Assembly: GCA_026874595.1 (NCBI GenBank)
Contig: CM049320.1
Location: forward strand, 18,984,988 to 19,048,987
DNA: 64,000 bases
Reading direction: 5' to 3'
DNA from: Sipunculus nudus
Lineage: Eukaryota; Annelida; Sipuncula; Golfingiida; Sipunculidae
Shown: piece after piece, positions 6,275 to 57,719 of the stretch
How positions within the stretch are numbered: the first letter of the stretch is position 1
How the letters are laid out: each line of letters opens with the position of its first letter
Position numbers and translations under genes: made by a program
The notes under the pieces: generated by a model
Seen by the model: the letters and a program-made list of their open reading frames with translations, nothing else
The model's database searches: none
What the model was told of the DNA's origin: nothing

Positions 6275-6620
6275 TTGAAAAATATTGTGAGTAGAAAAAT
6301 GATTAATTAGAAGTAGACAGAGGGTTTTGAGTTTTGCGCCAGTCATACCTGTCGTATCAATACCCACACCTGATCCCCTGTGGTGTCCACTGGAGCATAA
6401 CGGACAGATTTGACAGGTTATCAATGACACAATTATGTTACAAGCGGTTGAAAAATATTGTGAGTAGAAAAATGATTAATTAGAAATAGACAGAGGGTTT
6501 GAGTTTTGCGCCAGTCATACCTGTCGTAACAATACCCACACCTGATCCCCTTTGGTGTCCACTGGAGCATAACGGACAGATTTGACAGGTTATCAATGAC
6601 ACAATTATGTTACAAGCGGT
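6275..6620 (+). repeat. Two 173-bp tandem units upstream of the L1-like ORF1
   Basis: 6275-6447 is repeated at 6448-6620 with only a few substitutions and one single-base indel seen by eye. The array stops about 85 bp before the first recognisable ORF1 codons of the LINE, so it lies where the element's 5' UTR should be. Tandem 5' monomers are known in some L1 elements, where they carry promoter activity. A promoter role here is inference. Confidence 0.8.
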
Positions 6621-6705
6621 TCCAACAAATGTCTCTGGTAGACAATTATTAGAAATAATGTGAACAAAGAAACAGACGATAGAAAATAAAACTGAAAAAC
6701 TACAT

Positions 6706-21791: not shown

Positions 21792-22657
21792 ACAAGAATT
21801 AGGTTTTCAACACGGAGCCTGTGCAACTGCATTAAGATTGAAGGTATGTGTTCTTTACGTTTCGTCCTTGTAATTAATCGGGCTGACATGTTTTGTACTC
21901 TGTAAATTAATTAAAGAGGTTTGTGGTATGCAATACAATAATGAATTTGCATAGTACATTTTTGATATAGCCAGTACATGTACTAGCTGTGGAGTTGAAT
22001 CCTTGCTGAGATACTGACGAATTTTAGTGGTTTGAGCACATCTGACATATCAACCTAGGGGTCAATTTTTAATTGGTGTCATCAACATACATAAGAAAAA
22101 TAACCTTATGCTGACTGATAGTTCTGCCAAGTGGAATGGTATTAATTTTGAACAGGAGAGGGCTGAGTACAGAACCATATTGGTCTCTTTTTACTTATTA
22201 TCCATGATTTGATTCTTTTGAATTAATATAAACGCACTCAGCTGATAGGAAAAAACCAAGGACATAACCTGTGCTGCTGCAGATGTGTCTCCCAGGCACT
22301 AAAGCACATCATTCTGCACTCTCAATAAAGCTGATTATGTAGAATGATTGGCTTTATAAGCTGACTTATCGTGACTTATTTTCTTCAGATGATCAATTAG
22401 GTGCCCAGCCACTACTTTTCCGAGTACTTTACTTACAAAGAGCAAATGTGACACTGTTTTTTTTTCAAAAGTTCTCTATCCAAACTTGTTTTCTAAAACA
22501 AAGATTTCACTATTGCCTGCTTATTGAAGGTTCGCAATAGGCATTGTATAAAAGATCTGTGAATTATGGAGCTATTTATGGGATTTAAAATATCAACAAT
22601 GCTCTTTATTGGTTCAATTGGCATTGGATCAGGCTCACACTGTTTTTGAATTTACTT
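21792..22657 (-). mobile_element. Antisense CR1/L2-like LINE fragment, copy B, RT portion
   Basis: Homologous to 14184-15121. It keeps part of the RT region, but the LDLSAA motif seen in copy A is partly deleted around 22255-22270. It ends exactly at the Gypsy target site. Confidence 0.7.
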
Positions 22658-23390
22658 TGTTGCATGGACGTCACCCGGACATCGGAGGATGGCGCCACGA
22701 AGTGGTGTGGCCGCCCCCGTTTCAACGCTTATGGATCCACCCCGCTATCAGTGACTACTGACGCGCTTTGAGAAACATAAAAACTATTCTTGGACCATTC
22801 AGTACTGGTTTTGCAGTTCTGCCGGCGCTATCGTTTCTCTCAAGCAAAACCACAAACTTCTGCGGTTTCCACCCATTGTTGAAAACCTATAAAACGAACT
22901 CGCCTGCAGTACGAGGCGGGACTATTGACTTCGCCAACGCCACGTTGCTGTTATCCCCGGGGACCGTGACCGTGGGCTCTTGGTCCCCAAGCCCACGGAA
23001 TGCCATGAAACCACGCCATGAACTTTATTATTTAAGAAGAGGAGAGACTTTGTTTGTTTGGTGCCACATGGATTAATACAGGACTTCAGTTTTGTGTGTG
23101 CCCGAATTATGTGTTGATGATGGACTTCAGTTTCTCGTATACCGGATTCAGTTAAGTATTTCGTTACAGTTCGTTATTTAGAGACTCAGTTTTCGTCAGA
23201 GACTTGGTTATAAATTACGTTATGTATTGACTATTATATTATTTGTGTATGAATGTAAATATTGTAATCTAGTAATATAGTACTGTTTTTGCACCCATAT
23301 TTTGGTTACGCATTCATTTGAAGAGAACGTGTCTCAGCATATGTGTTACGGTTCGGCCTGAGTTGTTTGGTGTGAAAAAGGACCGTAACA
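22658..23390 (+). repeat. 5' LTR (733 bp)
   Basis: Starts TGTTGCATGG and ends GACCGTAACA; identical to 28637-29369 except at four positions. It contains a TATAAAA at 22888-22894, a plausible U3 promoter. An open frame of 102 codons (22768-23076) exists in both LTRs, but it is most likely non-coding, since it spans the presumed promoter. Confidence 0.95.
22888..22894 (+). promoter_or_regulatory. TATA box candidate in the 5' LTR
   Basis: TATAAAA lies 231 bp into the LTR and recurs at 28867-28873 in the 3' LTR. The placement fits a U3 promoter that drives the full-length RNA. The transcription start is not known. Confidence 0.5.
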
Positions 23391-23393
23391 TAA

Positions 23394-23411
23394 TGGCGAC
23401 CGCGACGAGAC
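23394..23411 (+). other. Primer-binding site
   Basis: TGGCGACCGCGACGAGAC begins three bases after the LTR end. TGG pairs with the CCA tail of a tRNA. The sequence resembles the TGGCGACCG-type site of Gypsy elements primed by tRNA-Arg; the exact tRNA is inference. It would start minus-strand DNA synthesis. Confidence 0.75.
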
Positions 23412-23548
23412 CCTGTATTTCGTAATAACGGCTACATTTGGATGTAAAATTTCACAGTGGTCTCTATAACTTCTAGTTATTGAACTAGTATTTAACTACA
23501 ATTGAACTCGTATATTTCTCAGACACGTTATCTTGATACTTTGCAAAT

Positions 23549-26500
23549 ATGGGTACGGAATTTAAACCAAATGAAATTATACCACAATTAAGAGAAAATA
23601 GGAGCTTATTGTATACGTTAAAGAAAAATGAACTTGAAATTGTTGCTCTACATTTAAATATTGACATCATGGATGTATGCACTGTAGAGGGTTTAAGAAA
23701 TGTACTTAAGAAATCATTATATGGTGATGTAGAAAGTAAAGAGGAATCTGATTTGGAGGAAAAACCTATTAAGGAACCTCTTGGGGCAACAGCTATTGAC
23801 CCGATAGAACTAGAATTGAGAAAGTATGAACTTAAATTGAAATATGAGCTCAAAGCTCAAGTTGAAACAGATAAATTGAAATATGAAGCTCAAGTTGAAA
23901 CAGAAATCCGTAGATGTGAAATCGAAAGAGAAACGCAAATTAAGTTGAAAGAGTTAGAGTTACAAAATCCTCAAAATCGTAAAGCACCTGAGCCGTCTGA
24001 ATTCCTATTCAGAAATTCGACAAAAGTACCTCCCTTCAATGAAAATGAAGTGGAGCGTTATTTCAGTTATTTTGAACGGGTGGCCACTTTAATGGCTTGG
24101 CCTAAAGGCCAGTGGACCCTGTTGTTACAAAGCGTTCTGGTTGGTCGGGCACAGGACGTTTACACTGCGCTCACAGACGAACAATGCAGGGATTACGACA
24201 CTGTAAAAGAGGTCATTCTGAGAGCCTATGAATTAGTCCCCGAAGCGTATCGCTTAAAATTTAGGAATGCCACCAAAAGAGAAAATCAATCTCATGTTGA
24301 ATATGCTAGAGACAAAGAAAGTGCATTTAATAGATGGTGTCAGTCTATGAAAATTGATCAGGATTTTGAAAAACTCAAACAACTAATTTTGATAGAAGAG
24401 TTCAAAAGGCATATCCGTAGTGACATTAAAATATTTTTGGATGAACATAAAGTAAGGAATGTAAACGAGGCTGGTGTCCTGGCAGATGAATTTGCCTTGA
24501 CGCACCGCCCCAGTTATACCAGTCACAGGAGGAGGTATGTTGAGAAAAGAGAAGGTAGCAAAAGCCCAAAACTGGGTCGGAGAAAGGGTAGTCCCTACTA
24601 TCGGGGTCACTCCGGCTCGGGTGAACCACAGTCCGATCATGGTAAACCCCAGTATAAAAGTCAATCTGACTCTCCTGCTCAACATAAAGAGGGACAACCT
24701 AGGACTGGACCCAAATATTGTACATTCTGTGAGTTCAAGGGGCATACAGAATCTGAGTGTTATAGAAAAAGATACGGTCAAAGTAAGCCTAAACCTAATG
24801 CGTTAACTGTTACGCAGAGCATGAAACCGGTAACAATGCCCAGTAAACTAGAGACTAAAGGTGAAACACAAAGCCCTGTCCACGAGAGCTTTCAGCCCTT
24901 TGTGTCAGATGGCTTTGTTCAGTTAGAGGGTAACCATGCAAGAAAGGCCCGTGTTAAAATCTTAAGGGATACCGGGGCAACCCAAAGCCTCGTTTTGAAA
25001 TCTGTTCTTCCCTTCTCTCAAGAGAGTTACGCGGGGTGTTCAGTTCTAGTCCAGGGCGTTAATTCGGAATTTTTAGAAGTTCCATTACACAGAGTGAAAC
25101 TAGAATCTGATTTAGTCTCTGAATTTGTAACTGTAGGAGTTTGTTCAAAGTTGCCAGCAGAGGGCATTTCGCTCCTCCTAGGCAACGATTTAGCTGGTGA
25201 CAGAGTGAAAATTGATCCCAGAATGACAAAATTGCCGAGCACTGATAGGGACACAGACCTGCTCCAGCAGGAGTTTCCGGGCGTATTTCCAGGCTGTGTA
25301 GTGACTCGAGCGATGAGTAAAAAGGCAAGTCTGAAACCAGAGAGTTCTGTACTTGACCTCTCGCAAACCTTTATGGCGCATTCAAACGATGACGTCAGTG
25401 GCTTAAAGCCTGTTACGCGAGTAAATATTAAATCGCCCGCGTGTGACCCAAGTGGCACACCAAGTCCAAAGGACTCGACTACAAATGTAGTCCAGGGCAA
25501 ACAGACCCTGAATAGAAATCTCCAAAGGAGTACAAACGGCGTGAAATCGCCTGATCAAAATGGGCATGAACAGTTAAAGAAGGATAGGAGTGTAAAGAAT
25601 GTAGAAGTTAGCTTGAAAACTGATGATTTGATAGCAATGCAAAAGAAAGATCCTGATATTGCCTCCCTTAGAGAAAATGCCTTGACTAAAGAGGAAGCAG
25701 ATAAAGTTCCAACTTGTTTCACCTTACAGAACGATGTACTAGTCAGAAAATATAGACCTCCCACCGTACCAGCGGACGAAACGTGGAAAACTCTTTATCA
25801 AATTGTAGTTCCCCCCGAGTATCGCCCTGAAATCTTAAAACTTGCACATGATCATCCTATGGCAGGACATTTGGGTGTCAGGAAAACCAAACACAAAATT
25901 CTCCAACACTTCTATTGGCCCAAGTTAAAACGAGACGTGGCGAAATACTGTAAAACTTGTCATGTGTGTCAAATGATTGGAAAACCAACCCACCAAATTA
26001 GTCCTGCGCCACTCTCGCCCATACCAACAACACATGATGCGTTTGAATCAATAATACTTGACTGTGTAGGACCGCTAAGAAAAACTAAACATGGCAATGA
26101 ATATGTTCTAACAATCATGTGTACTGCAACTAGATTTCCAGAAGCAATTCCTCTTAGAACTATATCTGCAAAGAAAATTGTTGAAGCTCTGGTTAAATTT
26201 TTTACTACTTTTGGCTTACCAAGAACAATACAAACGGATCAAGGTTCAAATTTCATGTCAAATATATTTGCCCAGGTTATGGCAGAGCTAGGCATAAAAC
26301 ACTACAAATCCAGTGCCTACCATCCTGAGAGTCAAGGTGCTCTAGAGCGATTTCATCAAACTCTCAAAAACATGATTAGAGCTTATTGTCTTGACACTGG
26401 GAACCAGTGGGATGAGGGTTTACCCTTTTTGATATTTGCAGCCCGAGAAGCAGTGCAAGAAAGCTTAGGGTTTAGCCCTTTTGAATTAGTGTATGGGCAC

Positions 26501-28021
26501 TGTGTAAGAGGCCCCCTGGCGGTGTTAAAAGACACTTGGATGGAAAACAGTTCTCAAAGTAGCTTGTTAAAATATGTTCAGGAATTCAAGGAGAAATTAA
26601 GTAGGGCAAATGAAATCGCCCAAGAACATTTAAAGAACGCCCAAAACAAAATGAAAGTATGGTATGACAAAAAGACGACAAAAAGAGAATTTAAACCTGG
26701 TGATAAAGTTCTGGTATTATTCCCAATTCCAGGACATCCCCTGCAAGCAAAATACTCTGGACCATACAAAGTTGTTGAGAAGAAATCAAATTTGAATTAT
26801 GTGATTGATACTCCTGATCGTAGAAAGTCGCAACAACTTTGTCATATAAATATGTTGAAAGAATATCATGACAGATCAGCGGAAACATGTCAATCTAGTC
26901 CTCCCCAAACAAATTTGGTACTCATTAAAGAAACTGAAAAGAATGCCGAGGATGTTCTCATGAAGAAAACTGAACATCCTGTAAAACTGAACAACTCTGA
27001 TATTTTAAATAATTTAGATCAGAAATTGTCACATTTGGATTTCGATCAGTTATCAGAGCTGAAGGAAATCCTGATAAATTATGGCTCTTTATTTCCTGAT
27101 GTCCCCAGTAGAACTAATGTACTACAGCATGATGTAGACGTAGGAGATGCTTCCCCTATTAAACAGGCACCATATAGAGCTGGTCCCCAAAAGTTACAAG
27201 CCATAAAGAATGAAATAAAGTATATGATAGAGAATGATATTATTGAAAACAGCAGTAGTGCCTGGAGTTCCCCATGTTTGTTGATAAAGAAGCCTGATAT
27301 GACCTACAGATTTTGTACAGACTATCGAAAAGTTAACACTGTAACAATAACAGATACTTACCCTTTGCCCAGAGTGGAAGATTGCATTGATAGGATTGGA
27401 TCTGCTACGTATATTAGCAAGTTAGATCTGTTAAAAGGTTATTGGCAGGTACCTCTTACCGAACGGGCTAAGCAAATATCTGCGTTTGTAACGCCAAACG
27501 GTTTGTTCCAGTACAAAGTTATGCCCTTCGGAATGAAAAATGCGCCAGCCTGCTTCATGAGACTTATGAATTGTGTATTATCTGGCTTAGATAACTGTAC
27601 TTGCTATATTGATGATGTTGTTGTATACAATCACATATGGGAAGATCATAAACAAAGTTTGGTAGAACTCTTTGAGAGACTGAAAAAAGCAGGATTGACA
27701 GTTAATCTTGCCAAGAGTGAGTTTTGTCGTGCAACTGTAACATATTTAGGGCACGAAGTAGGTCAAGGTTGTGTAAAACCAATTGCCAGTAAAGTATCTG
27801 CTATCGTAGAATTTCCAGTTCCTACTAATCGCAAGGAACTAATGCGATTCTTAGGAATGACTGGGTATTACAGGAAATTTTGTCAGAACTTTGCAGAAGT
27901 TGTAAATCCGTTAACGGACCTATTGAAAAAGGACAGAAAATTCCATTGGAATAAAAACTGTCAAAATGCTTTTGAAAGAGCCAAAGCTATATTACAAAAT
28001 ATTACAGGCTCCAAATTTTGA
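23549..28021 (+). CDS. gag-pol: Gag-protease-integrase-reverse transcriptase polyprotein
   Basis: A 1490-residue frame. Gag: residues 1-410, with a charged helical stretch at 85-140, a capsid-like region at 150-320 whose end (about 225-320) resembles a SCAN domain, and a CCHC zinc knuckle (C391, C394, H399, C404). Protease: D474-T-G. Integrase: zinc-binding H767/H774 and C804/C807, catalytic D838, D897 and E933 (35 residues between the last two), and a GPY module at 1071-1073; no chromodomain. Reverse transcriptase: about 1185-1455, with catalytic D1293 and Y-I-D-D at 1353-1356. The TGA at 28019 cuts the frame off just before RNase H. Gag and Pol share one frame with no shift between them. 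The start at 23549 is the first ATG after the leader and fits a normal Gag N terminus. Confidence 0.95.
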   Translation: MGTEFKPNEIIPQLRENRSLLYTLKKNELEIVALHLNIDIMDVCTVEGLRNVLKKSLYGDVESKEESDLEEKPIKEPLGATAIDPIELELRKYELKLKYELKAQVETDKLKYEAQVETEIRRCEIERETQIKLKELELQNPQNRKAPEPSEFLFRNSTKVPPFNENEVERYFSYFERVATLMAWPKGQWTLLLQSVLVGRAQDVYTALTDEQCRDYDTVKEVILRAYELVPEAYRLKFRNATKRENQSHVEYARDKESAFNRWCQSMKIDQDFEKLKQLILIEEFKRHIRSDIKIFLDEHKVRNVNEAGVLADEFALTHRPSYTSHRRRYVEKREGSKSPKLGRRKGSPYYRGHSGSGEPQSDHGKPQYKSQSDSPAQHKEGQPRTGPKYCTFCEFKGHTESECYRKRYGQSKPKPNALTVTQSMKPVTMPSKLETKGETQSPVHESFQPFVSDGFVQLEGNHARKARVKILRDTGATQSLVLKSVLPFSQESYAGCSVLVQGVNSEFLEVPLHRVKLESDLVSEFVTVGVCSKLPAEGISLLLGNDLAGDRVKIDPRMTKLPSTDRDTDLLQQEFPGVFPGCVVTRAMSKKASLKPESSVLDLSQTFMAHSNDDVSGLKPVTRVNIKSPACDPSGTPSPKDSTTNVVQGKQTLNRNLQRSTNGVKSPDQNGHEQLKKDRSVKNVEVSLKTDDLIAMQKKDPDIASLRENALTKEEADKVPTCFTLQNDVLVRKYRPPTVPADETWKTLYQIVVPPEYRPEILKLAHDHPMAGHLGVRKTKHKILQHFYWPKLKRDVAKYCKTCHVCQMIGKPTHQISPAPLSPIPTTHDAFESIILDCVGPLRKTKHGNEYVLTIMCTATRFPEAIPLRTISAKKIVEALVKFFTTFGLPRTIQTDQGSNFMSNIFAQVMAELGIKHYKSSAYHPESQGALERFHQTLKNMIRAYCLDTGNQWDEGLPFLIFAAREAVQESLGFSPFELVYGHCVRGPLAVLKDTWMENSSQSSLLKYVQEFKEKLSRANEIAQEHLKNAQNKMKVWYDKKTTKREFKPGDKVLVLFPIPGHPLQAKYSGPYKVVEKKSNLNYVIDTPDRRKSQQLCHINMLKEYHDRSAETCQSSPPQTNLVLIKETEKNAEDVLMKKTEHPVKLNNSDILNNLDQKLSHLDFDQLSELKEILINYGSLFPDVPSRTNVLQHDVDVGDASPIKQAPYRAGPQKLQAIKNEIKYMIENDIIENSSSAWSSPCLLIKKPDMTYRFCTDYRKVNTVTITDTYPLPRVEDCIDRIGSATYISKLDLLKGYWQVPLTERAKQISAFVTPNGLFQYKVMPFGMKNAPACFMRLMNCVLSGLDNCTCYIDDVVVYNHIWEDHKQSLVELFERLKKAGLTVNLAKSEFCRATVTYLGHEVGQGCVKPIASKVSAIVEFPVPTNRKELMRFLGMTGYYRKFCQNFAEVVNPLTDLLKKDRKFHWNKNCQNAFERAKAILQNITGSKF

Positions 28022-28402
28022 TAAACCGTTTTCTCTCATGACGGATGCCAGCGATTGCGGTGTAGGCGCTGTGCTCATCCAAGACGATGACTTTAACATA
28101 AGTCATCCGGTTTGCTACTATTCAAAGAAATTTTTACCTCATCAAAAGATTATTCTACTATTGAAAAGGAAACTCTGTCACTATTGATGGCGTTACAGCA
28201 CTTTGAAGTATATTTGGGCTCTACGCCTTATGAAATAACTGTTTATACAGATCATAATCCCATAACATTTCTTCATAAGATGAAGAATAATAATCAGAGA
28301 TTAATGAGATGGAGTCTAGCCCTGACAGAGTTTAACCTAGTTATCAAACACATTAAGGGCTCCGATAACATAATCGCTGATACGTTATCGAGACGTTATT
28401 AA
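28022..28402 (+). pseudogene. RNase H domain, out of frame with RT at two points
   Basis: RNase H sequence continues directly after RT, but in another frame: the next frame over covers LMTDASDCGVGAVL and YYSKKFLPHQK up to about 28142. The reading then returns to the original frame with STIEKETLSLLMALQHF, TVYTDHNPITFL and a terminal DTLSRRY before TAA at 28400. The catalytic D, E and D positions are all visible. The first change lies between about 27990 and 28018, and the second in the CAAAAG run near 28142-28148. The two changes cancel each other. RNase H removes the RNA strand during reverse transcription, so as written this copy would be defective. Base-calling indels are an alternative. 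Confidence 0.85.
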
Positions 28403-28625
28403 TTTTGATCTGATGATTGACTCTTGTTATAGCCTCGGACATGTTTTGTCCTTTGGAAGAGTTGTATTACATATATTACATGTATTAAGATATTGCTGAT
28501 TATACTATTTGTGATGATGATAATTAATTAGCTGTAAGAAGCATAAACTAATGCTTAAGATGTCAAACTACTCATAAACTCGTCATACAGTGCTAATGCT
28601 TTGCTCTCCTTACCTTCTTTCTTTT
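28403..28625 (+). other. 3' untranslated region of the Gypsy element
   Basis: 223 bp between the RNase H stop and the purine tract. No open frame of envelope type, no membrane segment, and no extra gene seen. Confidence 0.7.
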
Positions 28626-28636
28626 AAGGGTGGGGG
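28626..28636 (+). other. Polypurine tract
   Basis: AAGGGTGGGGG lies immediately before the TG of the 3' LTR, the normal place for the plus-strand primer. One T interrupts it. Confidence 0.75.
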
Positions 28637-29369
28637 TGTTGCATGGACGTCACCCGGACATCGGAGGATGGCGCCACGAAGTGGTGTGGCCGCCCCCGTT
28701 TCAACGCTTATGGATCCACCCCGCTATCAGTGACTACTGACGCGCTTTGAGAAACATAAAAACTATTCTTGGACCATTCAGTACTGGTTTTGCAGTTCTG
28801 CCGGCGCTATCGTTTCTCTCAAGCAAAACCACAAACTTCTGCGGTTTCCCCCCATTGTTGAAAACCTATAAAACGAACTCGCCTGCAGTACGAGGCGGGA
28901 CTATTGACTTCGCCAACGCCACGTTGCTGTTATCCCCGGGGACCGTGACCGTGGGCTCTTGGTCCCCAAGCCCACGGAATGCCATGAAACCACGCCATGA
29001 ACTTTATTATTTAAGAAGAGGAGAGACTTTGTTTGTTTGGTGCCACATGGATTAATACAGGACTTCAGTTTTGTGTGTGCCCGAATTATGTGTTGATGAT
29101 GGACTTCAGTTTCTCGTATACCGGATTCAGTTAAGTATTTCGTTACAGTTCGTTATTTAGAGACTCAGTTTTCGTCAGAGACTTGGTTATAAATTACGTT
29201 ATGTATTGACTATTATATTATTTGTGTATGAATGTAAATATTGTAATCTAGTAATATAGTACTGTTTTTGCACCAATATTTTGGTTACGCATTCATTTGA
29301 AGAGAACGTGTCTGAGCATATGTGTTACGGTTCGGCCTGAGTTGTTTGGTGTGAAAAGGGACCGTAACA
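28637..29369 (+). repeat. 3' LTR (733 bp)
   Basis: Same length as the 5' LTR and about 99.5 percent identical by eye (four differences). It is followed by the ACTT target copy at 29370-29373. Confidence 0.95.
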
Positions 29370-29373
29370 ACTT

Positions 29374-40689: not shown

Positions 40690-41450
40690 CCAAGTGATCA
40701 GGTTGTTTTCTTGCGATATATTTTTAAGCAGGTTAATGTGCAAATTTTTAACCTTATTGTCAACCTTCACCTTATAGTCACAGTCATTGAACCTACCAAG
40801 TCCTAGATATGCCCCTACCATTGGAGTAGCAGCTTGTTCCTGTCCGTCGGTGGTAGAACAAGTACTTGTTCAACTATATCCAGCGACCTGGATTTCTTAC
40901 CTCTGTCATGATACTGTTTGTATCTCCTTGATACCTAACCTGCTGCAGACACCTAGCAAGGCTTCTGCAACTGTCTCAATATCTATGTTCTTAAGGGCTA
41001 CTGCTTCGGGATATCTGGTCGCATAGTCCATAACAGTGAGATTGAATCCCATGCCTCTACTAGATGCTGGATAGATTAGACCAACAATATCCATAGCGAG
41101 CCTTCTCCAGGCTACATCTATTAAAGGTACCTTTCCCAAGGGATGTTTCGATATGTTTCCCTTAGATACTGTCCTTTGACAGATGTCGCAGGACCTGCAG
41201 AAGTCTGTAACATCAGAATACATACCTGGCCAATAAAACTGGGATGACACTCTCTCAAGAGTCCTCCCGACCCCATGGTGACCGGACATCACACCGTCGT
41301 GTGCTAGCTTGATGACCTCATCTCTGTAACATTTAGGCTGTACCACTTGTGTACTACGTTTACCTTCGAGACTTTTGTGTCTATGTTCTCGCACAAGGAT
41401 TTCATGTTTTATTTTGAAGATGGACTTACCTTGCTTATCAGTTTTAACCC
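40690..41450 (-). pseudogene. Integrase remnant
   Basis: The frame 41394-40906 gives the HHCC zinc finger (KLAHDGVMSGHHGVGRTLER, then CRSCDICQRT) and the start of the catalytic core (AMDIVGLIYPAS with the first catalytic D, DYATRYPEAVALKN). The core ends at IKEIQTVS where the second D would follow; the rest of the core is deleted. A C-terminal tail in the GPY-module family (VGRFND, KVKVDNKVKN, HINLLKNI) is still readable at 40830-40690. It would insert the DNA copy into the genome; this copy lacks two catalytic residues. Confidence 0.8.
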
Positions 41451-41591
41451 TGCTCCAAAGGTAATCGAGTGATTCATCTGATTTCTAGGCTGTAGGAAAG
41501 TCTTTCCGACCGATACTGGCTATTCGACGTGGTACCTTTAGGCTTTTTGGAGCTTTAACCTTGGACAGACTCCTAGTCTGTACCATGCTTA

Positions 41592-41861
41592 TTACGGGCT
41601 GGCTTTTCCAGTTTGGATCAGGTTCTTGCTGCTGCTCTTCATGCATAATGCATCCACCTCACCAGTATAAAAAGGACAATCTATGTGTACTCTAGCTATT
41701 GGATATTGCCTGACAGTGCCATCTATGAGAACACAAGTTGCGCTAATGCCAGTCATCTGCTCATCAGGTATCAGGGCAGAGGGTACCACAGCCGTACTGC
41801 AACCTGTATCCCTAAGGACTGAAACCTCAGAGCCACAAACAATACCTTTGCTTGTAGGCAT
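41592..41861 (-). pseudogene. Retroelement aspartic protease remnant
   Basis: The frame contains VLRDTGCSTAVV with the catalytic D-T-G, then IDGTVRQYPIARVHIDCPFY and TGEVDALCMKSSSKNLI, the usual flap and C-terminal part. It sits between Gag and integrase remnants in the same orientation. The catalytic triplet is intact, but the surrounding pol is broken. Confidence 0.8.
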
Positions 41862-42089
41862 GCCTGACGAATGGTTTGCCTACTTCCGTTTGGCAAGATA
41901 TATTAAGTAGTTCAGGGTTTTCTAGGTCTAATGGATTTGACCCAGAGGAGACTGGGTTAGCAAAGAAACAAAGGCTTGTTTCTGTAGCTGACTCACCTTG
42001 CATAGACTTCCAGGGCCTCTTTCACTGCTACATTGACAGCTTCTTTAATTAACTGTTGATGATCTATGGTTTGTTGGTCCTGGGCTAAG

Positions 42090-43075
42090 TTCCTTAGTTC
42101 CCTACGTTTACATTGGTAAGACTTATGGCCAGGTAAACCAGTTGAAACATTTGATTGTCGCTTGGTTAGGTAGATGTTTCTTATCTTGCTTGCTTTGCTT
42201 TGACAAAAGGTCCAAAGATTTGTTGGGGTTCTTTCCTACCGTTTGGCCACTTTTATATGGCACACAAAAGCTATGTTGCCCGTGATCTTCCACATACCTT
42301 TAGGCCAGGATTATCATTACATCCATGTTCGTACATCCTCTCTCCCTTAAAAACAAGGACAAATCTTTACAACATGAGCTCATAAACTGTTCCCTTAATA
42401 ACAAATTCTTAAGACCGTCGTAAGGATGTTCTTGTCAGAGAGCTTTACTCAGTTTTGAAAGTAACTGTTAAGACGTGCAGCAAACTGGCTTGGAGGTTTA
42501 CTCTTTTCTGGTCTACTGGACCGGAATCTATCCATTTAACCTTCTTCGGTCATTTGATACCTTTTCAGAAGAGCTAACTTCAACCGATTATAATCTAAAG
42601 CTTCTTTAGGAGGTAGTCTAGTGAACACATCAAGGGATTTACCTTTCAATATTGCACTCAGACGGATGGCCCAGTCCGACCTTGCCAACTTTTGTCCTGA
42701 GGCTAGTCTCTCAAACCCCTCAAGATAAGCATCAAGGCTATCTCTGTTCTCATCAAAGGGTGGCATTTTGATGGCTGGAAGAGAGGTTGCATCTACCGGT
42801 TTGTTAGAGTTAGGATCTGGTTTTGCCATTTGAACTTTAATTTTTAGTACCTCTAACTCATGTGTCTCGGCTTCATTCTGTCTAGCGATCTCTCGTTCCC
42901 TAAGCCTATCCTCCCTCTCCTGGTCACCCCTGCGTTTATCCTTAATACGTTTGATCTCACGATCAACAAATTCCTGGAGGTTGCTACCGGCATAACACAG
43001 ATCGTTATCGAATTTCAAGATCTTCTCTAGGCCCTCCATCTTGAAAATCAAATCTGACTCAATGCAAACATTCAC
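42090..43075 (-). pseudogene. Gag remnant with SCAN-like region and zinc-knuckle trace
   Basis: The frame 43075-42536 encodes a charged coiled-coil part (REDRLREREIARQNEAETHE) and a capsid-like part (MPPFDENRDSLDAYLEGFER, ALLKRYQMTEEG). After a stop, the same protein continues in other frames with EHPYDGLKNLLLREQFMSSC and KDLSLFLRE, then YVEDHGQHSFCVPYKSG; this matches the C-terminal capsid fold related to SCAN. A partial knuckle (GHKSYQC) appears near 42115. Several frame breaks make it non-functional. Gag would form the particle shell. Confidence 0.7.
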
Positions 43076-49290: not shown

Positions 49291-49692
49291 TCATTTGAGT
49301 CCATTTGGAATGTCGTCCATTTTAACGTGATACAAGATGGTTATTAATCGTTGCTTTTTCATGCTCGCATCATGAATCGCAAAGTTTACTTCAAAGTGAA
49401 ACCAATCACTCTTCAGGGATGCCTCAGATGCAATAATTATTGTCATCTTGCTCTTCAGAATACCGCTACATATGTTCTCTTGCACTGGTCTGCCCGGAAT
49501 AAAGTCTCTTTCGGGAAAGAGACACTTAAAGCCGCACGACTCCAGTTCACATACCAATCTTCCCACAAAGACAGTCTCTTCCGTGGTACAACTTATGTAA
49601 GCATGCCGTTCGTCTTCTTCATCTAGATCAGGCACTTTACCATCCCAAGTATCACTTGTTGATTTGAAGCTGGACCTGGTTGGCGTCAGCAT
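49291..49692 (-). CDS. TIR-domain exon (innate-immune signalling)
   Basis: This 133-residue frame is almost entirely a TIR domain. Box 1 is HAYISCTTEE, following a short acidic lead (DLDEEDER). Box 2 is FPERDFIPGRPVQENI with the RDxxPG loop. After it come SKMTIIIASEASLKSDWFHF, EVNFAIHDA and RLITILYHVKMDDIPNGLK, then TGA at 49291. A usual TIR runs about 135-150 residues to a box 3 FW motif; this one stops before box 3. TIR domains bind other TIR domains in Toll/MyD88 pathways, and some cleave NAD. The start may lie at a splice acceptor (GCCAACCAG) shortly after the ATG, so the exon may belong to a larger gene with the exons at 52-54 kb. Confidence 0.85.
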   Translation of the reverse strand: MLTPTRSSFKSTSDTWDGKVPDLDEEDERHAYISCTTEETVFVGRLVCELESCGFKCLFPERDFIPGRPVQENICSGILKSKMTIIIASEASLKSDWFHFEVNFAIHDASMKKQRLITILYHVKMDDIPNGLK

Positions 49693-52156
49693 AAAATTCT
49701 TTATATATTTATGATTTAAAAAAATATATCATATCATTCATATACATTGACATTGATATTTGCGACATATCGCATATTCAAAATAAAAATATTATTTTGT
49801 TATTCTGGCAGATACTTGAATTTGCTTGCAGGATAACCTATTGATGTTGTATATTTACTAGAACATATTCATACTGAAAGCATCATTTTTAGAATATAAG
49901 AACGCCCTTCCAATTACGTAGGGTAATCCTACGACACAAACAAACAAAAAAAATAATAAAATAATCCCGAACACATCATTACAAATTACAGAGGAAAGTA
50001 ATAATAGAAGCCGGCCAGCATAACAATTTGGGACCCGTAAGCTTAGAGAAAGTTATACATAGAATTATATATTTTAATATTTAAGCTATGTGACTTTACA
50101 CGCCTTACACACATAGTGATCTCAAGTATATGCTTACTGCATTTATTGTCTGAAGAAAATGAGAACCGTTCGAGTCATGTAATAGAATACATGATAATAA
50201 CTATTGTTAGCCTGATGAAAAAGCGAAATATTGCTGGCGGTGGCCTAAGGACTATTTATTATCGCTTTTCGTCACATTCACGCACTTTCATGATCGTTTA
50301 ACAAGTTTCTATTGGGCGCGCAAAGGATATATTTTCTGTATTTGTTTAATATCTTAAATAAGCTTGTTCGTTACCTTGCATAGAGAGATAAGCGCATCAC
50401 TTTGTTTGCGTGATGATGACCACGTGATGATGATTGTCCTCTTTTGCCATTCCCAATGCTTTCTGAAATTCCTACAAATACCAAATTTTTAGGAAAAATA
50501 TCCTAACCTGTTATGAATAATTATATATTTTGGAAAAGGTATAAGCATTTCGGATTGCACAGTTTTGGAACGAAGTCCAAGTTACGTCTGATGAGCCTGT
50601 ATGTGTTACCCTTCCCATATATAATACAATGAGCCAGCAGACACATAGAAATATATAATATAATCAATGATAGCCAAAATACAATATATAGAATATACTT
50701 TCAATGCAAGTTTTATGATGATAAGCTTGATTGTTTTCTTCTAATCCCATAAATAAGTAGATGCTGAGTAGTTTACACAAATTGTTTATCGACAGAGCAC
50801 ACCTACAACTCTATTGTCACAAAGCTGTGTGAGAACAAATCCGGAGCGTATGCAAACATATGAATGCGAACCAAGTTATTGTTTTTAAATTATGGAACTT
50901 TAGCCGAGTCCTTCTAAATTATAATGCGAACTGTTGCCAAATCAACTCTTATACCCCCCCCCCCCCCGCAAATTATTTTAGTGTGGACAAAGGAATTTCC
51001 CATTTTCCACCTAAAACGTCCCTGCCTTATCTTTCCCAATCACAGGCGATGAACGGATTCTTTCCAATATCCTTTAGGACATGTGGCGCATGTATACAAG
51101 TAACCATTCAAATCCCCGTACTAGATTGATGAATAGGACCTCTAACCTGAGTTTTCCTGGATTATGGTTGCTAATGACCGAGTTATTTGTAGAGCATACT
51201 TCAATAACTGACCCTCTGAATAAAATACTTTGCATTCTGGCAGGATGCATGACCCCTACAGTTTAGCTTTTTCTGTACAGATCATTGGACATTACAACAC
51301 CTTCCTGTCTGTCCAGCTGAGCTATATAATTTACCTGAACTAGGTTGGTAAGATAGTCAGGAAAATCTTTTTAACCAATTTGTCCCTTTCTCCTCAAAGT
51401 ACGGACGATTGGTAAAACCGCGATAAATCAAAGCTTTGTTGATAGAGAATGCTAGTCTTTTTGATACTTAGGACACGAGTGCGTCTCCATTATTAGGTCT
51501 AGCCAAACCTATGATTTTTAAGATACCTGCGTGACAAGCCTCAGATACATTGCTGGGTGGTTCAAAAGCATACAATTGTGCTTGGAAATCTAGCATATAT
51601 TTATTGGAGGTATCGATCTCCCGCCATGTGTTTCTTGGTTTCCAAGGAGCAGTTATGATTTAGGAAGATTCGCCATGTGTGCCGGAGCCTCTGTTTTTCC
51701 CCGTAGAGAAACTATTATCAGTAAAAGTTTTGATGGGTTTATTCAAAGTAAACGCATATTCATGTTGGCTAGATGATGACTGGTTGTGATATCTGAAAAG
51801 CGCCATCGACGCAGATGTTCATATCTGTGCTGGGCGAAACCATCTTGGCTGCTGCATGTGATGCTAAGCTCTTGCTGGTATGTTGCAAACCGAGGGTTTA
51901 CGCTGTCGGTCTAACATATATAATTGACAGCGCACCTTCGTGTGAATGATGGTAGAATGCTAATATAGGTCTGGTGACGAGACACCATGATTCACTGAGG
52001 CAGTTTTGTGAGATAGAGAGATTTCTCTGATCAGCCCACTGTTGCATCTCGAAACAAACTGGTGTGTCCAAAATTCTGTTCTTTGGTCTTCTGGCAAGTC
52101 TGATTTAAGTAATTGCTCGTATCAAACAAAGCCGAACGAGCCCACTCCAAGCTTAC
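49693..52156 (-). other. Intron-like stretch with weak exon candidates
   Basis: Two minus-strand intervals look exon-like. About 50475-50379 is open between an acceptor (TATTTGTAG) and a donor (CAAG|GTAACG) and reads NFRKHWEWQKRTIIITWSSS. About 51645-51520 reads WREIDTSNKYMLDFQAQLYA and ends at CAG|GTATCT. Their phases do not join cleanly to neighbours, so neither is called as a gene part. A poly-C run is at about 50953-50967. Confidence 0.3.
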
Positions 52157-56639: not shown

Positions 56640-56990
56640 CCATAATCTAACAGGTTGTATGTCAAACTGGTACTCTTGCAGTATCAGCGCCCATCTCAAA
56701 ACTCGTCCCTTGCTGAAATTTGACGTTGTAATGCAACTTATGGGTTTGTGATCCCTCTGGACCGTGAATTTCTTATCAATTCTTGAACGACTGACAAACA
56801 TTCAAGCTCGACCTGAGATGTTTTTATCTCTGGGCAACAGTTTCCTACTCACATACGGCACTCCACTGGATAATCTCGCGTCGTACAGAACTGTGTATAG
56901 AGGCTTTGGCTTCGCCATCGTTAGCTTAAGCCCAGTGATCTCCATCCTCCGACGGCTCACCAGAGGAATTATCCTCATCACGTGTTGATT
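56640..56990 (-). pseudogene. RNase H remnant
   Basis: Minus-strand reading gives PYVSRKLLPRDKN and then, in another frame, FTVQRDHKPISCITTSNFSK and GRVLRWALILQEYQFDI. These are the second half of a Gypsy RNase H, including the last catalytic D of the DHKP motif. The stretch carrying the catalytic E is lost. Confidence 0.75.
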
Positions 56991-57029
56991 CATTCACCGC
57001 TGCGGGATTTGTTGCGTCTCTAGCTTAGT

Positions 57030-57180
57030 TTGTTACTGCTTGGGCCTATCAATACGGAAGGTTTTTACCTTCCCGTTGACCTTAACTCTGTAGTCAAGGT
57101 CACTGACCTTTCCGACGACCTGATATTGCTTTCCCCTTTCATTGCATTAATATGATGTTGCGGTCAGTTGGCAACATCAA
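57030..57180 (-). pseudogene. Integrase C-terminal (GPY-module) remnant
   Basis: Minus-strand reading gives LPTDRNIILMQ and, one frame over, QYQVVGKVSDLDYRVKVNGK with VKTFRI. This is the tail normally found after the integrase core. It closely resembles the tail at 40.8 kb. Confidence 0.65.
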
Positions 57181-57719
57181 CAAAACTTGATTGCCGACTT
57201 AAATATCGCGCCAGCGCGTGCCTCTGTCATAGGGACGCTTATCTTGGTTACCCTTTGGTATCGTCCGCTGACAAAAGTCATACGTCTTACAAAATTGCGC
57301 GACGTCCCAATATATTTCCTTTCAGAAAAACTGACTACGTATTCTCTGATATGTACGTTCTTAACCTTCATGACCTCCTATCATAGTCTCATGGCCTAAG
57401 GTTATCACGTGATCGCGGAGAGCAGTTTCTTCAACAAACTGCGTACCAGACTTGCCTATATCTTTCGTAACGATATTCCTTTATCATTTACGTGAAACCG
57501 GGTACGATCCGCATTTGCGTCTGTTGCCTCTTTCCATTAAGCAGCCAACGATTTGTCGTCTTTCTGCGACTGGGCAAATTCCGACGGACTAATCACCATT
57601 ATTTGTTTCAGCACGGATTGCTCATGCGTCCCATGCGCTCGCATCCGTTTCATTGCCTGAGTTTCTACTGCCGAAGTAACTTTGGAAGTTGGCTGAATCA
57701 AGTGCGCCTTTCCTATCTC

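What the first reader, a model, noticed from the sequence alone, without database searches (positions are those of the whole stretch)
22658..29369. Gypsy element with Copia-like pol order (integrase before RT) outside deuterostomes
Along the 1490-codon frame the order is Gag, CCHC, protease (D474-T-G), integrase (D838, D897, E933), GPY module, then RT (YIDD at 1353-1356) and RNase H. Normal Ty3/Gypsy elements carry RT-RNaseH before integrase. The Gmr1 group (Goodwin and Poulter, described from deuterostomes) has this inverted order. If the host is a mollusc, as the rest of the window suggests, this element is evidence for the lineage in protostomes.
Basis: partly seen in the sequence, partly recalled or inferred. 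Interest (0 to 1): 0.75.

Follow-up and report, generated by a model that had tools for sequence, protein, structure and literature searches.

The report
Gmr1-type Gypsy element, integrase first
This is a recent, multi-copy LTR retrotransposon of a known animal group (Gmr1) whose integrase lies before its reverse transcriptase; the odd gene order is real, but its presence outside vertebrates and echinoderms was already in print.

Summary
The element has two 733-bp LTRs (4 mismatches), a 4-bp target duplication and an open 1490-codon frame: Gag (SCAN-like), CCHC, protease, integrase (D838, D897, E933), GPY/F module, RT (YIDD). RNase H is not in that frame; it lies downstream, broken by two frame shifts, so this copy is defective as assembled. 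Integrase and RT are both Ty3/Gypsy-type. Separate trees put each in one clade of integrase-first elements (100/100 and 100/99), so it is not a chimera. Among the 120 listed relatives integrase precedes RT in 120; among 240 listed relatives of conventional comparators RT is first in 238. In the host genome (1.43 Gb) 91 of 91 scored matches to the integrase piece are 96-100% identical, and the 8 best copies, this one included, share the order. The Gmr1 assignment is well supported. The claimed novelty is not: Gmr1-like elements were reported from crustaceans in 2013 and an annelid in 2021, and relatives sit in Pinctada, Pecten and the sponge Dysidea. The host was not identified; a mollusc was neither shown nor excluded. 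New member of a known kind, modest interest. In passing: a degraded, possibly deeper-branching integrase-first relic at 40.9-42.8 kb.

The parts
22654..22657 (.). 5' copy of the 4-bp target-site duplication ACTT
22658..23390 (+). 5' LTR, 733 bp, TGTTGC...GTAACA
23394..23411 (+). putative primer binding site (TGGCGACC...), 3 bp after the LTR; complement of an arginine tRNA 3' end by recall, not tested
   Evidence: tRNA identity recalled
23549..28021 (+). open Gag-PR-INT-RT frame, 1490 aa
24239..24505 (+). SCAN-like part of Gag (PF02023, E 1.9e-10)
24719..24760 (+). CCHC zinc knuckle (motif read by eye)
24917..25237 (+). protease, DTG at residue 474
25796..26470 (+). integrase: H2C2 zinc domain and DD35E core (D838, D897, E933)
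26759..26860 (+). integrase C-terminal module (PF22938, GPY/F region)
27101..27895 (+). reverse transcriptase, YIDD 27605-27616
27999..28402 (+). RNase H, beyond the stop of the main frame and broken by two frame shifts
28626..28636 (+). polypurine-like tract before the 3' LTR
28637..29369 (+). 3' LTR, 733 bp
29370..29373 (.). 3' copy of the target-site duplication ACTT

Best explanation
It is a young insertion of a multi-copy Gmr1-type Ty3/Gypsy LTR retrotransposon. By the standard LTR-retrotransposon cycle (inferred from anatomy, not shown), the LTR promotes an RNA that is translated into one Gag-protease-integrase-RT-RNase H polyprotein. The protease releases the parts, Gag packages the RNA, RT/RNase H copies it from a tRNA primer, and integrase inserts the DNA with a 4-bp duplication. 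The integrase core and its GPY/F module sit as one block between protease and RT; because protease separates the enzymes, order along the polyprotein need not matter. The order probably arose once, by moving a Gypsy integrase block upstream, not by taking in a Copia integrase (inferred). This copy is itself broken in RNase H.
For: Domain order in the window. LTRs, duplication, polypurine tract. RT tree (61 rows): the 24 integrase-first rows, window included, are one side of a branch, 100/100; integrase tree (61 rows): 100/99. Order census of listed proteins: integrase first in 120 of 120; RT first in 120 of 120 and 118 of 120. Identity to the window: integrase 60-72% and RT 58-68% in the 120, against 29-40% (117 of 120 measured) and 38-47% in the 120. 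Best solved match of both pieces is Ty3 (7q5b), where RT (580-875) precedes integrase (1087-1338). SCAN Gag; a Gag profile built here matched 86 of 120 integrase-first and 0 of 240 conventional proteins. Own genome: 91 of 91 scored matches at 96-100% identity, 23 of 91 with an open frame of 1600 aa or more; the 8 best copies, this one included, are Gag-PR-INT-RT in 8 of 8.
Against: The Gmr1 type element of cod, Mag, CsRn1 and Osvaldo could not be put into the trees by name; most comparators are unnamed. One of 120 proteins (P0261, Closterium) reads integrase before RT, but RNase H lies before that integrase, so it looks like a partial or nested prediction; one other has RT only. The proteins were limited in length and many may lack Gag, so the 0 of 240 overstates the contrast. 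The integrase tree's bootstrap had not settled, and its program warned of long branches meeting. In both trees the animal conventional rows hold together only weakly (86/61 and 93/64), so the exact sister of the clade is open. In the 8 copies one RT match is partial (L020), and RNase H lies mostly outside the stretches fetched. No activity was shown.
Confidence: 0.95

Rival explanations
1. A chimera: RT from one Gypsy clade and integrase from another (or from Copia), giving the order by recombination in this copy or family.
For: The order is that of Ty1/Copia.
Against: RT and integrase both fall in the same integrase-first clade. Pfam gives RVT_1 and Integrase_p58_C and no Copia model. The same 120 proteins match in both parts.
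Confidence: 0.03
2. A conventional Gypsy element scrambled in this one copy (nested insertion, inversion or misassembly).
For: RNase H is broken in this copy.
Against: One open frame of 1490 codons runs through both domains; the 7 other own-genome copies examined have the same order, as do 120 of 120 listed relatives.
Confidence: 0.01
3. An errantivirus-like or endogenous-retrovirus-like element with an envelope gene.
For: None beyond the LTRs and the Gag-Pol anatomy.
Against: Only 234 bp lie between the end of RNase H (28402) and the 3' LTR (28637), too short for an envelope gene.
Confidence: 0.01

Closest known systems
Gmr1 clade of Ty3/Gypsy (Goodwin and Poulter 2002; not held, known here from citing papers and recall)
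   Same: Integrase upstream of RT, Gypsy-type enzymes, SCAN-like Gag
   Different: The Gmr1 type sequence was not at hand; the 120 listed relatives are 53-61% identical over the covered part of the integrase-RT stretch
Gmr1-like elements of crustaceans (GyRex4, Gychoro2, GyMaja1, GyLiva4; PMC3587641) and annelid family LGF3 (PMC8220671)
   Same: Related to or inside the Gmr1 clade according to those authors; protostome hosts
   Different: No sequence comparison made here; GyRex4 and GyRex5 were partial sequences
Integrase-first proteins of Pinctada imbricata (P0010), Pecten maximus (P0048), Dysidea avara (P0075) and of echinoderms and hemichordates
   Same: Same order; integrase 63-68% and RT 62-67% identical in the 12 named proteins printed
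   Different: Different families: 32-38% of residues differ in these domains
Ty3 of yeast
   Same: Best solved match for both RT and integrase
   Different: RT before integrase

Membership tests
Gmr1 clade | Integrase upstream of RT in a Gypsy element | tested here: met
   8 of 8 own-genome copies examined, this one included
Gmr1 clade | RT and integrase both grouping with integrase-first elements | tested here: met
   (100/100 and 100/99)
Gmr1 clade | SCAN-like Gag (in a frog survey, found in over 50% of Gmr elements only; PMC4131045 passage) | tested here: met
   (PF02023, E 1.9e-10)
Gmr1 clade | Grouping with the named type element Gmr1 of cod | not testable with these tools
   No collection here could be asked for it by name
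Ty1/Copia | Copia-type RT and integrase models | tested here: not met
   RVT_1, H2C2, rve and p58_C, no Copia model up to E 1; best PDB match Ty3
Conventional Ty3/Gypsy (Mag, CsRn1 and others) | RT and RNase H before integrase | tested here: not met
LTR retrotransposon | Paired LTRs, target duplication, polypurine tract, primer site | tested here: met
   the tRNA partner of the primer site is recalled only

The most novel reading that the evidence does not exclude
The integrase-first order arose once, early in animals, and the lineage is far older and wider than the deuterostome group it was named for: a member sits in a chromosome-scale sponge contig, members in molluscs, echinoderms and hemichordates interleave in the tree, and a degraded relic in this same window may branch below all of them. 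The block move of integrase plus GPY/F module would then be a single datable event.
Probability: 0.4. Interest if true: 0.45.

Novelty: new member of a known kind. Interest (0 to 1): 0.27.

Why it matters
It adds a young, multi-copy family to a clade that shows that polyprotein domain order is not fixed in Gypsy elements, and whose Gag is held to have given vertebrates the SCAN domain (PMC3424704, PMC4592553, passages). The wide host range among listed relatives, sponge included, suggests that the order is old, but the specific claim of first evidence outside deuterostomes is not new.

Tried and rejected
Relatives in IMG/VR: two scans, no confirmed relative. Rfam and tRNA scans of the window: nothing. 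Gag piece against the PDB: no match at E 0.01. Ten of the longer ORFs of the window against Pfam: one integrase zinc domain and one TIR domain. Host identity: a COX1 family search gave 11 matches, of which 10 lie on contigs that look bacterial and one is a short fragment on C5; the molluscan haemocyanin family (label recalled) had no match, but it rang in no control genome either, so it says nothing. Concatenated quick tree: no starred set holds the window, so the host cannot be read from it. Programmed frameshift before RNase H rejected because 103 of 120 listed relatives carry RNase H in one predicted protein with RT. Goodwin and Poulter 2002 and Emerson and Thomas 2011 are not held; what I say of them comes from citing papers or recall. 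A search for Gmr1 with sponge, porifera and coral terms was swamped (6,612 papers, 10 listed, none of the ten with Gmr1), so it does not show absence; a four-term search for integrase-upstream Gypsy elements in bivalves gave none.

Full report
What is there. The element spans 22658-29369 on the + strand. The LTRs are 733 bp each, begin TG and end CA, and differ at 4 of 733 positions; ACTT flanks both ends; a polypurine tract precedes the 3' LTR and a primer-site-like stretch follows the 5' LTR. The low LTR divergence says that the insertion is recent; no rate was available, so no date is given. The only ORF of 200 aa or more in the window is the 1490-aa frame 23549-28021.

Domain order. Pfam, and profiles built here from the relatives, give Gag with a SCAN domain, protease, H2C2 and DD35E integrase, the C-terminal p58/GPY/F module, then RT; the CCHC motif lies between Gag and protease. 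RNase H is the exception: the frame ends before it; the similarity goes on in a second frame and then returns to the first frame beyond the stop. This copy is therefore defective in RNase H as assembled; whether the breaks are in the DNA or in the assembly was not tested.

Not one copy's accident. The window lies in a 1.43-Gb assembly, on a 64-Mb contig. There the integrase piece has 91 matches of 91 scored, at 96-100% identity; 8981 candidates passed the first look and 91 were scored, so this is a lower bound. Of the 91, 23 lie in open frames of 1600 aa or more, 4 of these flagged with a stop inside the matched stretch. The 8 best copies were fetched, the window's own included; all 8 are Gag-PR-INT-RT, one with a partial RT. 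The family is therefore multi-copy and its copies are very alike.

Relatives. The integrase-RT stretch found 2835 proteins among 7976 scored candidates; the best 120 were listed. Integrase precedes RT in 120 of 120. Named ones include Pinctada imbricata and Pecten maximus (bivalves), Dysidea avara (sponge, on a 65-Mb contig), Glandiceps and Ptychodera (hemichordates) and Amphiura, Lytechinus, Strongylocentrotus, Holothuria and Apostichopus (echinoderms). Some hits carry bacterial names and are probably host contamination of symbiont bins (inference).

Comparators. Conventional elements were reached through contigs in bacterial and archaeal bins that I take for contamination (13 loci): 12 of 13 have RT ahead of integrase (L013 also has a second RT stretch after it), and L001 is integrase-first. 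Two searches with such elements listed 240 proteins: RT first in 120 of 120 and in 118 of 120; of the remaining two, one has RT only and one (P0261) reads RNase H, integrase, RT.

Trees. From proteins with at least 90% of both domains (120, 117 and 113 of the three lists) I took 19 that I had labelled by name and 30 at random, plus 10 locus ORFs, the window and Ty3: 61 rows in each tree. Not every named protein of the lists was labelled. In the RT tree and in the integrase tree the 24 integrase-first rows are one side of a branch, with support 100/100 and 100/99. In both, this clade and the set with the conventional Pinctada, Petrolisthes, Prochilodus and Paramuricea proteins lie together apart from Ty3 and the algal elements (99/95 and 100/100), but that conventional set itself is weakly held. 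In a quick tree of all 120 listed relatives the hosts interleave: Pinctada lies in a group that also holds echinoderm rows, Dysidea lies elsewhere, and the window is in no starred subset.

Mechanism. Shown: the anatomy, the catalytic residues, the 4-bp duplication, the near-identical LTRs and the many near-identical copies. Inferred from the established LTR-retrotransposon cycle: one polyprotein cut by its own protease, tRNA-primed reverse transcription, and integration by the DD35E enzyme. The integrase core keeps its GPY/F module on its C-terminal side; in Ty3 a weak match to that module (domain E 0.54) also lies beyond the integrase match. The simplest history is the move of a whole integrase block from behind RNase H to between protease and RT.

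What is known. [quoted passage not shown] PMC8220671 places annelid family LGF3 in the Gmr1 clade in RH, RT and INT trees. PMC8556966 lists Gmr1 among clades present in several phyla. PMC6238403 (abstract, sections 6 and 13, one passage) mentions Gmr1 as an exception in its background, and its table of mollusc clades names no Gmr1 clade, though any of its 16 MolGy clades might hold such elements (not tested). So the protostome claim is not new. Five papers held gmr1, mollus and retrotransposon together; the Gmr1 passages shown for these five describe no mollusc member, but proteins of two bivalves with this order are in the protein collection.

A second relic. On the minus strand, Gag- (42763-42542), protease- (41831-41652) and integrase-like (41349-40921) stretches follow each other with about 300 bp between the last two, too little for RT. 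Pfam found no family in the Gag-like ORF, but 67 of 120 integrase-first proteins and 0 of 240 conventional ones match it by tblastn, with the caveat that many of the latter may lack Gag. The integrase piece joins the base of the integrase-first clade at 99/88 in a tree from which I had dropped two long rows (L002, P0182); a quick tree with those two rows kept gave no starred set for it. It is a long branch. It may be a deeper integrase-first lineage, or a conventional element that lost RT.

Verdict. New member of a known kind.

Noticed in passing
window 40921-42763, minus strand: Degraded Gag-protease-integrase relic with no room for RT between protease and integrase; its integrase branches at the base of the integrase-first clade in one tree, unresolved in another.
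   Followed up: partly
window 56646-57441, minus strand: Integrase zinc-domain piece (57441-57232) and an RNase H piece (56786-56646) of Gypsy type, probably a decayed element.
   Followed up: no
window 49294-49728, minus strand: A TIR-domain stretch in an ORF of 145 aa, probably an exon of a host gene.
   Followed up: no
own genome contigs C60, C61, C62, C66, C72, C74, C75, C89, C123: The assembly holds contigs that look bacterial: near-equal COX1-family scores on eight contigs (37-39% GC in the six stretches measured, on five of them) and another oxidase of bacterial look on C123, as if a symbiont with several strains had been assembled along (inference).
   Followed up: partly
L001 (contig NJBF01000089.1): A contig filed under a Heimdallarchaeota bin holds an integrase-first Gag-to-RNase H frame, so it is probably animal contamination.
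   Followed up: partly
window 6275-6621: A 172-bp unit repeated twice in tandem at 97% match.
   Followed up: no
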